The notes under the pieces are model-generated. The model worked only from the letters and a program-made list of their open reading frames with translations. It searched no databases and had not been told where the DNA came from. Source: Streptomyces sp. NBC_01451 (lineage in GTDB: Bacteria; Actinomycetota; Actinomycetes; Streptomycetales; Streptomycetaceae). Taken from it: a DNA stretch of 64,000 nt. Location: assembly GCF_036227485.1 (NCBI RefSeq), contig NZ_CP109479.1, positions 5,332,001 through 5,396,000 of the forward strand. Reading direction: 5' to 3'. The position numbers and the translations under genes are program-made. Shown here piece by piece: positions 2,136 through 63,700 of the stretch. Every line of letters begins with the position of its first letter. The stretch's first letter is position 1.

Positions 2136-2271
2136 AGGCGCCCACCATTCGGCGTAAGGTGTTGCGTCCGGGTTTGCCTGGGAGGGCTCTCGGGTACACC
2201 ATGGAAGTCACGGATCGTTCGCGACCGTGCTAACCCGGTCCGGCTCCTCCCCCCCCGAGTCGAACCGTGGG

Positions 2272-2306
2272 GACGACCCCCGCTCTCCCCCCCGGCGGGG
2301 GTCGTC
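2272..2306. promoter_or_regulatory. GC-rich hairpin in the HAD/Tad divergent region
   Basis: A perfect 12-bp inverted repeat (gacgacccccgc / gcgggggtcgtc) with an 11-base loop lies between two divergent genes, where a normal gene-end terminator is not expected. It could end a short leader or small RNA, or act in attenuation. Confidence 0.45.
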
Positions 2307-2449
2307 GCATGTCCGGGCGGGTTTCCTTTCTCCCCAAGCGCTTTCTTCGCGGCCGTGGTGCCGCCCGAGGCGGCTCCGGCCGCCTCTTTCGCATGCCCAC
2401 GCATCATCACTGTGGGTAACTGAAGCGCTGCTCTGTGGAAAGTAGTACA

Positions 2450-58186: not shown

Positions 58187-58218
58187 ATCACCTCCGTGAT
58201 ATCACCCCCGAGATGTGC
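58187..58218 (+). promoter_or_regulatory. Shared 32-bp element, copy B (radical-SAM operon)
   Basis: It reads atcacctccgtgatatcacc and then cccgagatgtgc, ending 106 bp before ATG 58325. The core ATCAC-N4-GTGAT plus an extra ATCAC half-site is identical in layout to copy A and at a nearly identical distance. The 480-bp gap 57845-58324 holds nothing else I recognise. Confidence 0.72.
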
Positions 58219-58324
58219 TCGCCCCGTGAATCCGGAGCACCCTCATGAGGGGCCCGAACTCCAGGCCTGCACAGCACGACATCAGATCCGAAATACGCCG
58301 CGCCAGCGACAGGAGATGAGTGCC

Positions 58325-58681
58325 ATGCCGACACCACGACGAAACAAGAACGATCACCTGCTCTACGCCGACGTCGTCGATTCCAAGCAGAAGGCCGGAG
58401 TCTGGATGGGCGAGCGTGACGCCTTCCAGGCCAAGCAGGCCGAGATCCTGGAAGCGGTGAAGGACCAGGCGGACTGGGTCCCGGTCGAGAACGCCATCCT
58501 GGTGGTCAGCACCGAGCCCGCCGGCATCACGGTCATCGCCCCGAACCCGACCCTCCCCGGCGTGATCGTCCTCGCCGACGGCGGCTCGCCGGAGGCCTCA
58601 GCACAGCTGCAGGCCGCCGGCGAGGAGCTCGTCCGCAAGGTCATGGCCGAGCGCGGCATCCTCGAAGAGGAAGCCGCGTAA
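58325..58681 (+). CDS. Small protein of unknown function, first gene of the radical-SAM operon
   Basis: A 118-residue protein; ATG 58325 has aggag 9 bases upstream. It starts MPTPRRNKNDHLLYADVVDS, has a central hydrophobic beta-like part (ENAILVVSTEPAGITVIAPN, PGVIVLAD) and an acidic helical C-terminus ending in ERGILEEEAA. There is no signal peptide, Cys-rich core or repeated core motif of the usual RiPP precursor types. It could be a carrier or scaffold protein, a precursor of a new kind, or an accessory subunit of the next enzyme. Confidence 0.7.
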   Translation: MPTPRRNKNDHLLYADVVDSKQKAGVWMGERDAFQAKQAEILEAVKDQADWVPVENAILVVSTEPAGITVIAPNPTLPGVIVLADGGSPEASAQLQAAGEELVRKVMAERGILEEEAA

Positions 58682-58686
58682 CACAG

Positions 58687-59988
58687 GTGGTCACCTCACA
58701 GCTCCTGTGGGGGAAGTACATCCAGTACGTCCGGGATGGCGAGGGCGCCCTCCTCGACCCGGTCACGCTGGACAGTGTGTACCTCAACCGCGGGGAGGTC
58801 ACTGACCTCTCCGCGGTTCCCCCGACCGCGACCCACAAAGCTCTCGCCGAGCTCGGCTTCACACCTGACAGCCCTCGCGCTGATCAGCGTGAAGCACTCC
58901 ATAACCGGCTCCACCAACTCGACCTGAATCCCGTCCCTGTACGGATCAGCGGCTTACGTGTCGTCCTCACCGACGCCTGCAACATGAAGTGCAGCTACTG
59001 CTTCGTCGAGACCAACACCGGTAGTCCGGACATGACCGAGCAGGAAATCGCCGACGGCCTGACCTACCTCTTCGAGACGAACGCCGGTCGCGACGAGGTA
59101 GCCATCCAGTGGTTCGGCGGCGAACCGACGACCCGGTTCGACCTGATGCAGCACGGGGACACCCTCGCGGACTCTCTCGCCGCGCGGTACAACGTCAAAC
59201 GGGTCCGCCGAACAGTCGTCACCAACGGGGCCCGCATCACCGACGCCATGATCGAGCACTTCGCCCGGTACGAGTACGGCGTCGGGATCTCGATCGACGG
59301 ACCGCCCGCCATCAACGCCGAACATCGGCGGCTCCTGGGCGGGCAACCGGCCGACGACCGGATTCGGCGCAACGTCCGCCGACTCCTCGACGCAGGCGGC
59401 ATCCACGTGGGCTGCAACCTCACCCCCACACCCGCGAACATCGGCCGCCTGGCCGAAACCGTCACCTGGATCATCGACGATCTCGGGTTGAAGTTCATCT
59501 ACGCCAACACCCCGATACCCACCAGCGGACGCTGGACGGTCAAGGGCAAGGATCTGGCCAGGGAGCTGTACCAAGCACGCCTCGTCGCTCTCGGGCGGGG
59601 CGGGATGATGTTCTCCGTCCTCGACCGGGCATTCCAGGCCCTCGACCGGCGCCGCCCCATGCTCTTCGACCACATTCAGAGCGACCGGACCCTGAACGTT
59701 GCCCTGCTGCCCGGCAACCGAGTCAGCCTCTGCGACATCAACTTCACCGCACCCTCCTTCCTGCACACCCTCGACGAACTGCGTGCGGACCCGAACCTGC
59801 TGGGCGGCATCGCCAAGAACGTCGCCCCCATCCCTGAATGTGGCCAGTGCCCGGCTCTGGCGATCTGCGGGGGCCCCTCGCGCAACGAACAGCTCCTGAT
59901 TCGCGGAGACCGGCCGGACCCGCAGATGTGCGACTTCTACAAGAGCACCGTGGAGATCGCCGTATGGGACAGCACGGGGGTGCAGTGA
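58687..59988 (+). CDS. Radical SAM/SPASM enzyme
   Basis: A 433-residue protein with GTG 58687, 5 bp after the previous stop and no strong ribosome site of its own. The [4Fe-4S] SAM motif is CNMKCSYC (Cys98, 102, 105). A C-terminal SPASM-type set is Cys385, Cys388, Cys394 and Cys415 (PECGQCPALAICGG ... MCDFYKS), which would hold auxiliary clusters. SPASM enzymes commonly modify peptides. The glycine-rich WFGGEPTTRFDLM strand matches the family. Leu codon 90 is TTA (58954), suggesting bldA dependence. It overlaps the next gene by 4 bp. Confidence 0.9.
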   Translation: MVTSQLLWGKYIQYVRDGEGALLDPVTLDSVYLNRGEVTDLSAVPPTATHKALAELGFTPDSPRADQREALHNRLHQLDLNPVPVRISGLRVVLTDACNMKCSYCFVETNTGSPDMTEQEIADGLTYLFETNAGRDEVAIQWFGGEPTTRFDLMQHGDTLADSLAARYNVKRVRRTVVTNGARITDAMIEHFARYEYGVGISIDGPPAINAEHRRLLGGQPADDRIRRNVRRLLDAGGIHVGCNLTPTPANIGRLAETVTWIIDDLGLKFIYANTPIPTSGRWTVKGKDLARELYQARLVALGRGGMMFSVLDRAFQALDRRRPMLFDHIQSDRTLNVALLPGNRVSLCDINFTAPSFLHTLDELRADPNLLGGIAKNVAPIPECGQCPALAICGGPSRNEQLLIRGDRPDPQMCDFYKSTVEIAVWDSTGVQ

Positions 59989-60890
59989 ACACTGTCACCC
60001 GCCCCGAGCGCTCGTTCTCCCCAGCCCGGCAGCGGTTCCGCTCCGCTCTCATCAGCACCGCCGGCCACTGCAAGATCGCCTGCGGATTCTGCTTCCGAGC
60101 AGACCGGGCCCACGGCTTCCTCGACATCCCCACCTACACCCGGGCCCTCTCCCGACTGAAGGAGACGGGTGTCGAAGCGATCTGCCTGACCGGCGGCGAA
60201 CCCACCCACCACCCCCAACTCCGCCAGCTCGTACGGCTCGCCCACCAGTTCGGGATTCCCGTGTCGATCGTCACCTCGGCCCGAGACCCCGAGGATGTCG
60301 ACCGGTTGGCCGACAGTGCGCGCCTGCTCGCGAACGTCACCGTGTCCGCCGACTCGGCCGGTGCCATGGAACTCGGTCGCACCACCCGCTCCGTGGCGTC
60401 GGCGATCGCGACGCTCGATCAGGTCCACACGGCAGAGAGAGTTCTCCACCTCACGTACTGGAAGCTCACAGCCCAGGAGTGCCAGGACATCTACGAGCGC
60501 GTCGACAAGTCAGGAGTCCAGATCCAGCTCAGCCCGGTGGCGCTCGACGACACGGCACTACAGCGGGCCGGCTCCACCTTCTACGGCTACCTTGCCCAGC
60601 AGAGGGAGGACGCCGATCTCCTCGGCCGCTACTTTCGGCTCACTCCGCGGTTCCAGGAGCACCTCACCGCCCTGCGAGCCATGCAGTTGTACCCGTGGCG
60701 ACGACCCTTCTGCGCGTCCGCGACGCTGTACGTGTCTGCAAGCGGCGAGATCCGCCGCTGCCCGTACGGCAAAACGGGGGTGAGCGTGCGCGCGCCTCGC
60801 GCGGAGATCAGTCGCTTTCTCCGCACCGAACCGCAGGACCGGACCACCCCAGAGTGCGCGGCCATCTGCCGCGCCGACGACACCCCGTGA
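59985..60890 (+). CDS. Second radical SAM enzyme
   Basis: A 301-residue protein from GTG 59985 (overlap GTGA). The cluster motif is CKIACGFC (Cys29, 33, 36), followed by the SAM-binding GGEPTHHPQLRQL. Additional cysteines lie near the C-terminus (RRPFCAS, IRRCPYGK, PECAAIC), possibly ligands of an auxiliary cluster. It is more compact than the SPASM enzyme upstream and may act on the same substrate in a second step, or install or recycle a different modification. Confidence 0.87.
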   Translation: MNTVTRPERSFSPARQRFRSALISTAGHCKIACGFCFRADRAHGFLDIPTYTRALSRLKETGVEAICLTGGEPTHHPQLRQLVRLAHQFGIPVSIVTSARDPEDVDRLADSARLLANVTVSADSAGAMELGRTTRSVASAIATLDQVHTAERVLHLTYWKLTAQECQDIYERVDKSGVQIQLSPVALDDTALQRAGSTFYGYLAQQREDADLLGRYFRLTPRFQEHLTALRAMQLYPWRRPFCASATLYVSASGEIRRCPYGKTGVSVRAPRAEISRFLRTEPQDRTTPECAAICRADDTP

Positions 60891-60897
60891 GTGGACG

Positions 60898-61683
60898 ATG
60901 ACGACCCCAGTCACCACACCCGAAGAGTTCATCGAACGGTGGCGGACCCCTCCCAACAAGCGTGTCAGCGACACCCTCACCGCCACCGGCTTCAGCTTCC
61001 CGCCCGCCCTTGACGTCCTCGACGCCGTCCGACAGGACGAGGAAGTGCGCTTCACTATCCTCGGAGACGAGGACTGGTCCGTACGCATGGAACGTACCTC
61101 GGCCTTCCGCACAGCCCCGGTCGAAGAAGTGGCCACCTGGACGTTCCGCCTCGTCCACTTCAACCTCACCCGCTTCTACGACGGACTCCTCAGCGGATTC
61201 CAGGAGCAGGTCATGGTCCCCTGGCGTACCCAGTTGTCGAGCTGGGGGTTCACGTGGCAACGGTGCGCGCCGCTGCTGTTCATCTCCACGGGCGGTGCCT
61301 CGTCGACGTACCACAACGACAACTCGCACGGGCTCGTGTGGCAGGTCGAGGGCACGAAGACCTTCCACAGCTACAGGGACCCCGACCAGCACCTCACGGC
61401 CGAGGCCGCTGTGGTGGGCGAGACCACCGCAGAGGAACCGCCCGAACACGACCCGGCCGACCGCGAGTCCGTACGGATGGGGCCCGGTGACCGGCTGTGG
61501 AGCCACGCTCTGACCCCGCACTGGGTGGCCACCGAGTCCCCGCTCGCGATGAGCGTGACCCTCTCTCACGGCGGCCTGTGTCACCAAGGCCGCTTCGCGG
61601 ACCGTGAATTGGCACTCCGCGCCTACTGGGACCAGCACCCCGACGAGGCGTGGAAGCTCGATCTGCGTAACGTCCGCTACTGA
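60898..61683 (+). CDS. Cupin/JmjC-like oxygenase
   Basis: A 261-residue protein. The putative iron triad is His139-x-Asp141 in STYHNDNSHGLVWQVEG with His203 or His208 in WSHALTPHW. The fold resembles cupin_8 or JmjC 2-oxoglutarate oxygenases, which hydroxylate peptides or small molecules. ATG 60898 is 7 bp after the second radical-SAM stop. It is the last gene of the operon and is followed by a 20-bp terminator. Confidence 0.75.
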   Translation: MTTPVTTPEEFIERWRTPPNKRVSDTLTATGFSFPPALDVLDAVRQDEEVRFTILGDEDWSVRMERTSAFRTAPVEEVATWTFRLVHFNLTRFYDGLLSGFQEQVMVPWRTQLSSWGFTWQRCAPLLFISTGGASSTYHNDNSHGLVWQVEGTKTFHSYRDPDQHLTAEAAVVGETTAEEPPEHDPADRESVRMGPGDRLWSHALTPHWVATESPLAMSVTLSHGGLCHQGRFADRELALRAYWDQHPDEAWKLDLRNVRY

Positions 61684-61686
61684 CCG

Positions 61687-61730
61687 GGCCGGGGCCGCTG
61701 CACCCTTCAGAGGGTGCAGCGGCCCCGGCC
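61687..61730. terminator. Bidirectional terminator between the oxygenase gene and aspS
   Basis: A perfect 20-bp stem (ggccggggccgctgcaccct and its complement) with the 4-base loop tcag lies between two convergent genes. Confidence 0.95.
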
Positions 61731-61742
61731 CTTTGGCGGTGA

Positions 61743-63065
61743 CTACGGGGTGAGCCGGTTAGGACCACGGAACAGGAAGGTGGCCTCCCGGATCGACTCA
61801 AGGCCGAGCATCACCATCAGGACCCGCCCGAGTCCCATGCCCAGACCGCCGTGCGGCGGGCACCCGTACCGGAACGCGTTCAGGTAGTCCTGCAGCGACT
61901 CGGTGCCCATGCCCTTCTCCGCGGCCTGCTTCAGGAGCACGTCGTAGCGGTGCTCGCGCTGCGCTCCGGTCGTGACCTCCAGGCCCTTCCACAGCAGGTC
62001 GAAGCTAAGCGTCAGACCCGGGTCGTCCGCCGGCCGCATGTGGTAGAAGGGCCGGATGCTTGTCGGATAGTGGGTGATGAACGCCCACTCGTGGCCGGTC
62101 TGCTCTTTGATGTGCGCTGCGATCCCGCGCTCGCCCTCCGGGTCCAGGTCCTCCTTCACTCCCGCCGGGTCCCAGCCCTTGGACCGAAGGATCTCCTGTG
62201 TCTCAGCCATCGTGATCCGCGGGAACGGCATTGTCGGCACCGTGACCTCGACACCGAACGTCTCCTGGATCGCCTCACCGTGTGCGTCGGCGACCTTGGC
62301 GATGGCATGAGTAAGCATCTGCTCCTCGAATACCATCACGTCCTCGACCCCGTCGATCCACGCCAACTCCACGTCCACGCCAGTGAATTCGGTGGCGTGC
62401 CGGGAGGTGAACGACGGCTCGGCGCGGAAGACGGGCCCGATCTCGAAGACCTTGTCGATACCGGCCGAGATCGCCATCTGTTTGAAGAACTGAGGCGACT
62501 GCGCCAGGTAGGCGGAGCGGTCGAAGTAACCGAGCTTGAACACCTCGGCGCCGGACTCCGAGGCTGTGCCCATCAGCTTCGGGGTGTGCATCTCGGTGCA
62601 CCCCTGCCGATAGGCGTACTCGCGCATCCCTTGCTCGAAAGTGGTCTGCACAGCGAACAGGAGCTGCGCCTGGGGCCGACGTCGTACGTCCAGGAACCGC
62701 CAGTCCAGACGATGTTCGAGTCCGGTCTGGTCGTCGATGGGTAGTGGTGTCTCTGCCCGGTTCAGAACCTCGACTGCTTCCGGGAGGATCTCCAGGCCGG
62801 CGAGTTTCACGATCGGGTTGTCCACCACGCGCCCGGTGATCCGGACCGCGGACTCGGGTGTCAGCCCCTCCAGCGCGGCCTCGACCTCGTCGCCTTCGCC
62901 GCCGCGTTTGTGGGTTACCTGAACCATGCCGGTGTGGTCGCGCACCACGACGAATTGCATTTTGCGCTGCAGGCGGAGCGTGTTCACCCAGCCCGATACG
63001 GAAACGGTCTGTCCGACATGTTCTCGCAGGTCGGACACCAGTACACGGTTAGTCGTGTGGATCAT
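61743..63065 (-). CDS. aspS: Archaeal-type aspartyl-tRNA synthetase (aspS2-like)
   Basis: A 440-residue class II synthetase; ATG 63065 is preceded by ggaggg. An N-terminal OB fold binds the anticodon (DLREHVGQTVSVSGWVNTLR). Motif 2 is GPVFRAEPSFTSRHATEF and motif 3 ends GGLGMGLGRVLMVMLGLES. It lacks the GAD insertion of the usual ~590-residue bacterial AspRS, so it is of the short archaeal/eukaryotic type; a housekeeping AspRS should exist elsewhere. Motif 3 has Gly where Glu or Asp is common before the invariant Arg. Whether it discriminates tRNA-Asp from tRNA-Asn is unclear. It converges on the radical-SAM operon and is controlled by a T-box. Confidence 0.9.
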   Translation of the reverse strand: MIHTTNRVLVSDLREHVGQTVSVSGWVNTLRLQRKMQFVVVRDHTGMVQVTHKRGGEGDEVEAALEGLTPESAVRITGRVVDNPIVKLAGLEILPEAVEVLNRAETPLPIDDQTGLEHRLDWRFLDVRRRPQAQLLFAVQTTFEQGMREYAYRQGCTEMHTPKLMGTASESGAEVFKLGYFDRSAYLAQSPQFFKQMAISAGIDKVFEIGPVFRAEPSFTSRHATEFTGVDVELAWIDGVEDVMVFEEQMLTHAIAKVADAHGEAIQETFGVEVTVPTMPFPRITMAETQEILRSKGWDPAGVKEDLDPEGERGIAAHIKEQTGHEWAFITHYPTSIRPFYHMRPADDPGLTLSFDLLWKGLEVTTGAQREHRYDVLLKQAAEKGMGTESLQDYLNAFRYGCPPHGGLGMGLGRVLMVMLGLESIREATFLFRGPNRLTP

Positions 63066-63340
63066 CGCAGCCCTCCAAGGGGCGTCGTCATGATCCCTTG
63101 GGGGCGCGGACGAGAAGGGTACTCGCGGTGCCACCGCGCCTTTACCGCAGCTCAAAGAGCTACAGCCTCATTCATGCCCGATGACGGGGGCCAGCCGGCG
63201 GGGCATTAGGCCTTCCATGGACCGTTCCTCCCCGCGCTCAGGAGGGTCTTCACCTCGGGGCGCAAGGCCGCCTTCCCAGCTACCGGCGACTCTCTCTGCT
63301 CGCGTGATCCCGCAGCTACTTGTCTCCTTCAACGCATTGG
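63066..63340 (-). promoter_or_regulatory. Translational T-box riboswitch, Asp (GAC) specifier
   Basis: Read on the minus strand: the gagacaagtag stem I motif, distal agagagtcgccggtagctgg, and a specifier loop ggtgaaGAC with GAC at 63248-63246 (Asp). The T-box is ggtggcaccgcg at 63135-63124, whose TGGC pairs with the NCCA end of a tRNA with discriminator G, as in tRNA-Asp. Downstream, cccccaaggg can pair with ccccttggaggg, hiding the ribosome site ggaggg. So uncharged tRNA-Asp should free translation. A -10-like tatgct lies at about 63347-63352. Confidence 0.88.
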
Positions 63341-63700
63341 TGTTGAGCATAGCGGGGCAGGCGGGGATACGACAGCAAGATCACGCGAACGAGGCAGCCT
63401 GCCACCCAACCGGCCATCTTCTGGCACCTGTCCCGTCCCCTTTGCCGCGCCAGATCTGCCGGATCGACGTACAGCCGTGACAGGGGCCCCCACCGTCAGG
63501 GATCTTCACGAGCCGTCGCTCCACGCCGTCGTCACGGAAACAGTCCGGGCGTCCCTGACGAGTTGCTGGCCCTCGGCTGCATCCCTCTGACCAGGACGCC
63601 CCGCCCCCAGGGCCGCGACATGCCGGCCATCCAGCATGGCCACACGCCATCCTCGCCACAGGTCCCACCTTGCCAGCGGACCCGCAGACCTTTCCGCCAG

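What the first reader, a model, noticed from the sequence alone, without database searches (positions are those of the whole stretch)
58187..63065. Undescribed two-radical-SAM operon with oxygenase, converging on a T-box-regulated AspRS
Seen: small unknown protein, SPASM radical-SAM enzyme, second radical-SAM enzyme and cupin/JmjC-like oxygenase tightly packed, with an extra AspRS opposite. Known: SPASM enzymes usually modify peptides, and extra synthetases in clusters often give self-immunity or feed aminoacyl-tRNA chemistry. Inference: a new natural-product or peptide-modification pathway linked to aspartate. I know of no described system with this set.
Basis: partly seen in the sequence, partly recalled or inferred. 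Interest (0 to 1): 0.78.

Follow-up and report, generated by a model that had tools for sequence, protein, structure and literature searches.

The report
Radical-SAM cluster guarded by spare tRNA-synthetases
A rare, undescribed bacterial gene cluster, in which two radical-SAM enzymes and an oxygenase probably modify a small companion protein, travels with a spare aspartyl-tRNA synthetase (and, in a sister branch, sometimes a spare glycyl-tRNA synthetase), which suggests that it makes natural products that attack tRNA-charging enzymes.

Summary
The window carries A (118 aa), B (SPASM-type radical SAM), C (second radical SAM) and D (JmjC-type oxygenase) head to tail, converging on an archaeal-type AspRS under a T-box-type leader whose specifier reads GAC (Asp). 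In 246 Streptomyces genomes C occurs in exactly the 15 with a clear A; 12 of these are A-B-C-D, and all 12 have AspRS2 beside the operon as well as a housekeeping AspRS elsewhere. Of 39 named A-B-C-D loci, 38 keep a T-box/GAC AspRS; the other contig ends after D. Yet 10 of 22 AspRS2 copies stand without A, nested among linked copies, as expected of an immunity gene that outlives its operon. A sister branch (A-B-C plus aldo-keto reductase, often PhyH oxygenases) lacks AspRS beside it; three of its loci, probably a fourth, carry an extra fused GlyRS instead, and Streptomyces shenzhenensis has both clusters and both synthetases. Best reading: an undescribed radical-SAM natural-product family, probably built on A's conserved flexible N-terminus, whose products inhibit a tRNA synthetase; the spare synthetase is self-immunity. 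Product, target and A as substrate are inferred. Eight literature searches found no paper on it.

The parts
58325..58681 (+). A: 118-aa small protein; conserved N-terminus of low predicted confidence (probably disordered, 11-26) ending in SxxKxGVW, then a helix-4 strands-helix domain; candidate precursor/substrate
58687..59988 (+). B: radical-SAM enzyme with CxxxCxxC and four further Cys (385, 388, 394, 415), all invariant in 13 aligned rows; nearest solved chains are radical-SAM enzymes, mostly maturases
59985..60890 (+). C: second radical-SAM enzyme; C29/C33/C36 and C-terminal C243, C259, C291 invariant in 12 aligned rows, C295 nearly so; overlaps B by 4 bases
60898..61683 (+). D: JmjC-type oxygenase; H139-x-D141 and H208 invariant in 18 aligned rows; model nearest to JmjC hydroxylases (FIH, YcfD, YxbC, MINA53, NO66)
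61743..63065 (-). AspRS2: 440-aa archaeal-type (aspartate--tRNA(Asn) ligase type) synthetase, extra to the housekeeping 589-aa bacterial AspRS; candidate self-immunity
63103..63341 (-). T-box-type leader of AspRS2; specifier GAC read at 63246-63248
63067..63107 (-). Predicted stem that sequesters the AspRS2 ribosome-binding site; overlaps the 3' arm of the T-box antiterminator-type stem

Best explanation
The operon makes a tRNA-synthetase inhibitor. B and C chemically modify the flexible, conserved N-terminal stretch of A (around D19-S20-x-x-K23-x-G-V-W27), D hydroxylates it, and a processed fragment or a modified residue inhibits the cell's ordinary aspartyl-tRNA synthetase. When tRNA-Asp is left uncharged it binds the T-box leader and frees the ribosome-binding site of AspRS2, a structurally different AspRS that tolerates the inhibitor. 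The sister branch makes a related compound with other tailoring enzymes, and some of its members use a spare GlyRS in the same role. Shown here: gene content, conservation, T-box and specifier by sequence, recurrence of two synthetase specificities, stand-alone AspRS2 nested among linked copies. Inferred: A as substrate, that a compound is made, its target, that AspRS2 is resistant.
For: C (E <= 1e-20) in exactly the 15 genomes of 246 with a clear A. All 12 A-B-C-D genomes have AspRS2 adjacent (Fisher p 1.6e-15, not corrected for relatedness) and all 12 also have a bacterial AspRS. 38 of 39 named loci have T-box/GAC/AspRS, the other is cut by the contig end. Two loci (L088, L091) keep the leader but have a deeply divergent AspRS. 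Stand-alone copies nest among linked ones and one keeps a D fragment, as expected if immunity outlives production. Extra fused GlyRS within 12 kb of A in 3 sister loci and near a contig end in a fourth genome, against 9 of 246 in the genus sample; housekeeping GlyRS also present in 7 of 7. S. shenzhenensis holds both clusters and both synthetases. D's model is nearest to JmjC hydroxylases, most of them acting on proteins. Precedents: albomycin SerRS2; microcin C and AspRS.
Against: No peptidase was identified in the A-B-C-D unit and no exporter is common to it; the only transporter found to recur is an amino-acid permease near 13 of 40 loci. A is conserved over its whole length across phyla, unlike most precursors. 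Ten AspRS2 copies have no operon beside them. The extra GlyRS genes have no recognisable T-box. 3 of 8 sister-branch Streptomycetaceae genomes have no fused GlyRS, and in G005 it lies about 250 kb away. The Pelomonas genome has no archaeal-type AspRS over the cut-off. The linked AspRS2 cases are related, so they are not independent events.
Confidence: 0.5

Rival explanations
1. A is not the substrate but a partner protein (carrier, recognition or scaffold subunit) of B and C, which act on a small molecule or another peptide; the product may still inhibit a synthetase.
For: A is conserved over its full length from Streptomyces to Verrucomicrobia, has a confidently modelled folded domain, and no peptidase was identified in the A-B-C-D unit.
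Against: Its conserved N-terminal stretch is modelled with low confidence, probably disordered, and ends in SxxKxGVW, invariant at S, K, G and W in 26 aligned rows; B's best solved relative is, as I recall, a peptide maturase; D's nearest folds are mostly protein hydroxylases.
Confidence: 0.25
2. The spare synthetases supply Asp-tRNA or Gly-tRNA as a building block for the product, as in aminoacyl-tRNA-dependent pathways.
For: Two specificities track two cluster branches. A GNAT-type acetyltransferase gene, a fold that can also use aminoacyl-tRNA (recalled), lies near 10 of 40 A-B-C-D loci.
Against: Housekeeping enzymes are present in all genomes tested, 12 of 12 and 7 of 7; a T-box answers to uncharged tRNA, not to demand for product; AspRS2 persists without the operon; none of A to D is a recognised aminoacyl-tRNA-using ligase.
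Confidence: 0.1
3. A-B-C-D matures a protein cofactor or peptide redox carrier; AspRS2 is an unrelated stress gene that happens to sit next to it.
For: Radical-SAM maturation of small protein subunits is known (recalled); the quinohemoprotein maturase model TIGR03906 is among B's weak hits (87 bits, cut-off 453).
Against: Apart from A to D and AspRS no gene family is shared by more than 15 of 50 loci, so no client enzyme is common to them; AspRS adjacency holds in 38 of 39 loci over at least three genera; GlyRS recurs in the sister branch.
Confidence: 0.1
4. AspRS2 protects against AspRS inhibitors made by other microbes, and the operon next to it modifies or destroys such a compound.
For: AspRS2 also sits near other synthetase genes (SerRS, a glutamyl-type enzyme) at some loci.
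Against: Radical-SAM pairs with a dedicated small protein are typical of synthesis, not of detoxification (established knowledge); some sister-branch loci lie beside NRPS-type, P450 and YcaO/TfuA genes.
Confidence: 0.05

Closest known systems
Producer self-resistance by a second, divergent aminoacyl-tRNA synthetase (albomycin SerRS2/AbmK; mupirocin, borrelidin and agrocin 84 are named there as similar; PMC9032320, passages)
   Same: Divergent second synthetase beside a biosynthetic operon, with the housekeeping one elsewhere
   Different: Here radical-SAM/JmjC genes with no known product; AspRS, or GlyRS in a sister branch; T-box control on AspRS2
Microcin C (peptide-nucleotide antibiotic that targets AspRS; PMC8183687, passages)
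   Same: Peptide-derived compound whose target is AspRS; E. coli overproducing D. radiodurans AspRS was resistant
   Different: A to D include no ThiF-type adenylyltransferase (that microcin C uses one is recalled); radical-SAM chemistry instead; A is a 118-aa protein, not a heptapeptide
Radical-SAM peptide maturases: PapB-type ranthipeptide enzymes, 5wgg (recalled as CteB) and others
   Same: B has the radical-SAM core and auxiliary-cluster cysteines and hits these models
   Different: Hits far below equivalog cut-offs (best 109 of 340 bits); A has no Cys-rich core; two radical-SAM enzymes plus JmjC
Streptide-type KxxxW cyclisation (motif recalled)
   Same: K23 and W27 of A are invariant in the 26 aligned rows
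   Different: TIGR04080 is not among the 25 best of B's 71 hits and hits C only weakly (32 of 500 bits); A is not a short precursor
Actinobacterial translational T-boxes of ileS (PMC1262725, passages)
   Same: Stem that sequesters the Shine-Dalgarno sequence
   Different: Asp specifier; controls an extra AspRS beside an operon

Membership tests
T-box leader (RF00230) | Covariance-model match | tested here: inconclusive
   83.9 bits, E 7.3e-19, full model 1-219, but below gathering score 93; 57-84 bits, all below 93, in 22 of 22 copies
T-box leader (RF00230) | Conserved T-box sequence and a specifier codon that matches the downstream synthetase | tested here: met
   GGTGGNACNGCGAG and GAA-GAC in 38 of 39 named loci; the other is cut by the contig end. 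That the codon follows GAA is recalled from other T-boxes
T-box leader (RF00230) | Alternative helix that blocks expression | tested here: met
   Window only: ribosome-binding site in a -23.4 kcal/mol stem that overlaps the antiterminator-type stem; a prediction, no covariation test made
Self-resistance aminoacyl-tRNA synthetase | Second synthetase of the same specificity beside the cluster, with a divergent housekeeping one elsewhere | tested here: met
   12 of 12 genomes
Self-resistance aminoacyl-tRNA synthetase | Confers resistance to the cluster's product | not testable with these tools
   needs product and assay
RiPP | Genetically encoded precursor peptide modified by the cluster's enzymes | not testable with these tools
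   A is a candidate; no modification data
RiPP | Peptidase or exporter in the cluster (common, not universal) | tested here: inconclusive
   No other gene family in more than 15 of 50 loci; of nine recurrent neighbour families scanned none is a peptidase, one is an amino-acid permease near 13 of 40 A-B-C-D loci; rarer neighbours not all scanned
Ranthipeptide/sactipeptide maturase | Equivalog-level match of B | tested here: not met
   best 109 bits against cut-off 340
Fe(II)/2OG JmjC oxygenase | HxD...H metal triad and JmjC fold | tested here: inconclusive

The most novel reading that the evidence does not exclude
A modular family of gene-encoded tRNA-synthetase inhibitors: all members make the same modified scaffold (SxxKxGVW), the residue just before it (position 19: Asp in the AspRS branch; Gly, Ala and more rarely Asp, His, Lys or Gln elsewhere) plus the tailoring oxygenases choose the synthetase that is hit, and each cluster carries the matching resistant synthetase. 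Reading residue 19 could then predict the target. Against it: the GlyRS-linked locus L114 has Ala19, the Pelomonas locus has Asp19 without an archaeal-type AspRS, and all Asp19/AspRS cases seen are one branch.
Probability: 0.15. Interest if true: 0.92.

Novelty: new variant of a known kind. Interest (0 to 1): 0.72.

Why it matters
Few antibiotics act on aminoacyl-tRNA synthetases (established knowledge), and the only peptide-derived AspRS inhibitor met in the passages read here is microcin C. This cluster points to a likely target (AspRS), a likely resistance gene (AspRS2) and its sensor (an Asp T-box) in dozens of sequenced Streptomyces and two Nocardiopsis. It also offers two radical-SAM enzymes and a JmjC-type oxygenase of unknown chemistry with a candidate substrate protein. 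The sister branch with GlyRS, and one species that carries both versions, gives a built-in comparison.

Tried and rejected

The second C-like gene in G073 (contig end) lacks the first Cys of CxxxCxxC, and L118 has a natural B-C fusion by deletion; both look decayed and were only described.

Full report
What is there. The window is G000:C1:5332001-5396000 of a 10.27-Mb single-contig genome of Streptomyces (one search gives the place; the genus follows from the named relatives, the nearest by AspRS2 being S. graminilatus, 99%). From 58325 to 61683 four genes lie head to tail on the + strand: A to B 5 bases apart, B to C overlapping by 4, C to D 7 bases apart. AspRS2 (61743-63065, -) converges on them. 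A matches no Pfam or NCBIfam model. B and C are radical-SAM proteins; the NCBIfam equivalog hits shown are far below cut-off. D is below the cut-offs of Cupin_8 and JmjC_2. AspRS2 is over the cut-off of aspartate--tRNA(Asn) ligase (475 against 353 bits) and keeps the sequences FRAEPSFTSRH and GLGMGLGR, which I take for class II motifs 2 and 3 (motif names recalled).

The T-box. Rfam's default scan misses it; a local scan finds RF00230 over its full length at 83.9 bits, E 7.3e-19, against a gathering score of 93. All 22 AspRS2 copies in the 246-genome sample carry it (57-84 bits, all below 93), with GGTGGNACCGCG and GAA-GAC. Of 39 named A-B-C-D loci, 38 have the motif, GAC, a ribosome-binding site and a start codon; the one missing (L078) ends at its contig end after D. 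In the window the ribosome-binding site GGAGGG is predicted to pair with CCCCC in a -23.4 kcal/mol stem whose 5' arm overlaps the T-box stem, the translational design that PMC1262725 describes for actinobacterial ileS (passages read). I made no covariation test.

Distribution. In 246 Streptomyces genomes A was found in 16, one of which (G191, E 2.9e-4, part of a 1102-aa frame) I set aside, as I did a second weak match in G000 itself (L017, E 1e-3). C at E <= 1e-20 was found in 15, exactly the remaining A genomes. D at E <= 1e-10 was found in 14: 12 A-B-C-D genomes, G011 of the sister branch, and G217 as a fragment beside AspRS2; G096 also has a decayed second C/D copy. AspRS2 at 80% identity or more was found in 20 genomes, 22 copies: 12 beside the operon and 10 without A, B or C in the 15.6-19.5 kb fetched around them (a 33-bit B match in L070 was not counted). 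One of these ten (L070) is a second copy in G006, which has the operon elsewhere. Fisher p for operon with AspRS2 is 1.6e-15, without correction for shared ancestry. C by profile at E <= 1e-40 was found in 9 of 245 genomes of the order sample, all one genus and including the window's own, and in 1 of 246 of the phylum sample, the window's own. A profile search of 5.8 billion proteins gave 97 A relatives (90% clusters; the tool needs shared 5-residue words), so the family is rare, but it reaches Nocardiopsis, Streptantibioticus, Pelomonas and Verrucomicrobia.

Named loci. Of 49 loci found with A, 39 are A-B-C-D. In 36 of them AspRS2 converges on D; in L086, L089, L106 and L108 0.8-1.4 kb lie between, with an Mrr-type gene in L086 and a transposase in L089. 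L088 and L091 have instead an AspRS at 36-39% identity about 5 kb upstream of A, over the NF003483 cut-off (534 and 527 bits), under a similar GAC T-box. L078 is cut. L085's AspRS2 is read in two overlapping pieces and may be broken. Beyond A to D and AspRS no gene family occurs in more than 15 of the 50 loci compared (window included; simple gene caller). The recurrent neighbours that I scanned are helix-turn-helix regulators, an amino-acid permease (13 of 40 A-B-C-D loci), a GNAT acetyltransferase (10 of 40), a HAD hydrolase and proteins without family.

AspRS2 tree (51 rows): the 10 stand-alone copies need 6 changes (at least 2 forced by well-supported branches) and lie among linked copies. 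This fits repeated loss of the operon with the synthetase kept, or transfer of the synthetase alone; L067 still shows residues 131-261 of D beside AspRS2.

Sister branch. Ten named loci (L112-L121; L120 and L121 alike in all rows) plus three unnamed ones (L029-L031; L030 and L031 are the same contigs as L113 and L117) carry A-B-C at 44-54, 41-53 and 35-41% identity, with an aldo-keto reductase and, in all but the Pelomonas and Verrucomicrobia loci, PhyH-type oxygenases, and without AspRS2. L118 has a natural B-C fusion and no separate C. L117 and L118 also hold a D homologue nearby (64 and 60%). L114 and L116 have a fused glycine--tRNA ligase (1440 and 1429 bits, cut-off 1244) upstream of A, in L116 with a SARP-type regulator between. 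In L117's genome a copy lies about 12 kb from A on the same contig, and in L115's genome one lies near a contig end while A lies near the end of another; these three are 84-85% identical to L114's, the copy in G005 68% and that in G074 59%. G005's lies about 250 kb from A; G246, G247 and G252 have none. That is 5 of 8 sister-branch Streptomycetaceae genomes, against 9 of 246 in the genus sample, two of those nine being sister-branch genomes (Fisher p 0.0035 within the sample). These GlyRS genes show no T-box. Housekeeping dimeric GlyRS is present in 7 of 7 genomes tested. S. shenzhenensis (L082, L115, G249) holds both cluster types, an archaeal-type AspRS over cut-off and the fused GlyRS; the other ten sister-branch genomes tested have no AspRS over that cut-off, while G020, which has no A, does.

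How it most likely works. A is modified in its flexible N-terminal stretch by B and C and hydroxylated by D; a fragment or residue released from it, or a compound built on it, inhibits AspRS; uncharged tRNA-Asp then opens the T-box and AspRS2 takes over. Shown: gene set, conservation, leader and specifier by sequence, different spare synthetases in the two branches. Inferred: substrate role of A, existence, release and export of a product, its target, resistance of AspRS2. The weakest point is that no peptidase or exporter is common to the loci. The logic follows established cases: albomycin's SerRS2 gives immunity where SerRS1 does not (PMC9032320, passages); microcin C acts on AspRS, and a Deinococcus AspRS made E. 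coli resistant (PMC8183687, passages). Passages were seen in four papers (PMC9032320, PMC8183687, PMC7136475, PMC1262725), the third without anything on this point; all others were search listings; none was read whole.

Verdict. Real, recurrent, not found in the searches made, with a testable prediction of target and resistance gene. As a kind it combines known kinds (radical-SAM peptide chemistry; synthetase self-immunity), so I rate it a new variant.

Noticed in passing
L064, L065, L019, L027 (L122 and L075 more weakly): A serine--tRNA ligase gene lies within 2 kb of AspRS2 in four loci; a 40% homologue lies about 7 kb away in L122 and a fragment in L075 (named by NCBIfam in L064 and L019 only). 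Whether it is extra to the housekeeping SerRS was not tested.
   Followed up: partly
L070:10609-11940: A 443-aa glutamyl-type synthetase (gltX/GluQRS-like) lies next to a stand-alone AspRS2.
   Followed up: no
L022, L085, L088, L091: A large NB-ARC-WD40 protein and an ARMT1-like (DUF89) protein form a pair next to the operon in four loci from different genera (ARMT1 by Pfam in all four, NB-ARC-WD40 by Pfam in L022 and L088 and by clustering in L085 and L091).
   Followed up: partly
13 of 40 A-B-C-D loci, e.g. L090:15563-17080: An amino-acid permease (AA_permease_2) lies a few kb from the operon, and a GNAT acetyltransferase near 10 of 40; either could serve export, uptake or immunity.
   Followed up: partly
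L093, L094, L095, L097, L103, L109; IMG/VR loci L181-L183: A block of phage-tail-like genes (tape-measure protein by eye in L181 and L183) lies upstream of A in a group of strains; the viral-contig records end with B.
   Followed up: partly
L112:2862-4760 and L118:13678-15864: Two large proteins without Pfam family in sister-branch clusters look like CHAT/caspase-type peptidases with a zinc ribbon (by eye only); they could mature A.
   Followed up: partly
L115 and L116 downstream of PhyH: A P450, a YcaO and a TfuA gene follow in two GlyRS-linked clusters, which hints at peptide-backbone chemistry; L114 and L117 have the P450 only.
   Followed up: no
L067:7756-8964: A Shedu-type (SduA) gene lies beside the D fragment and AspRS2.
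   Followed up: no
G058:C1:3482469-3483365 (L022 C): One in-frame TGA in C of this strain; possible pseudogene or sequencing error, left as it is.
   Followed up: no
window 2234-2310: 6C RNA (RF01066, 52 bits, over its gathering score of 47).
   Followed up: no
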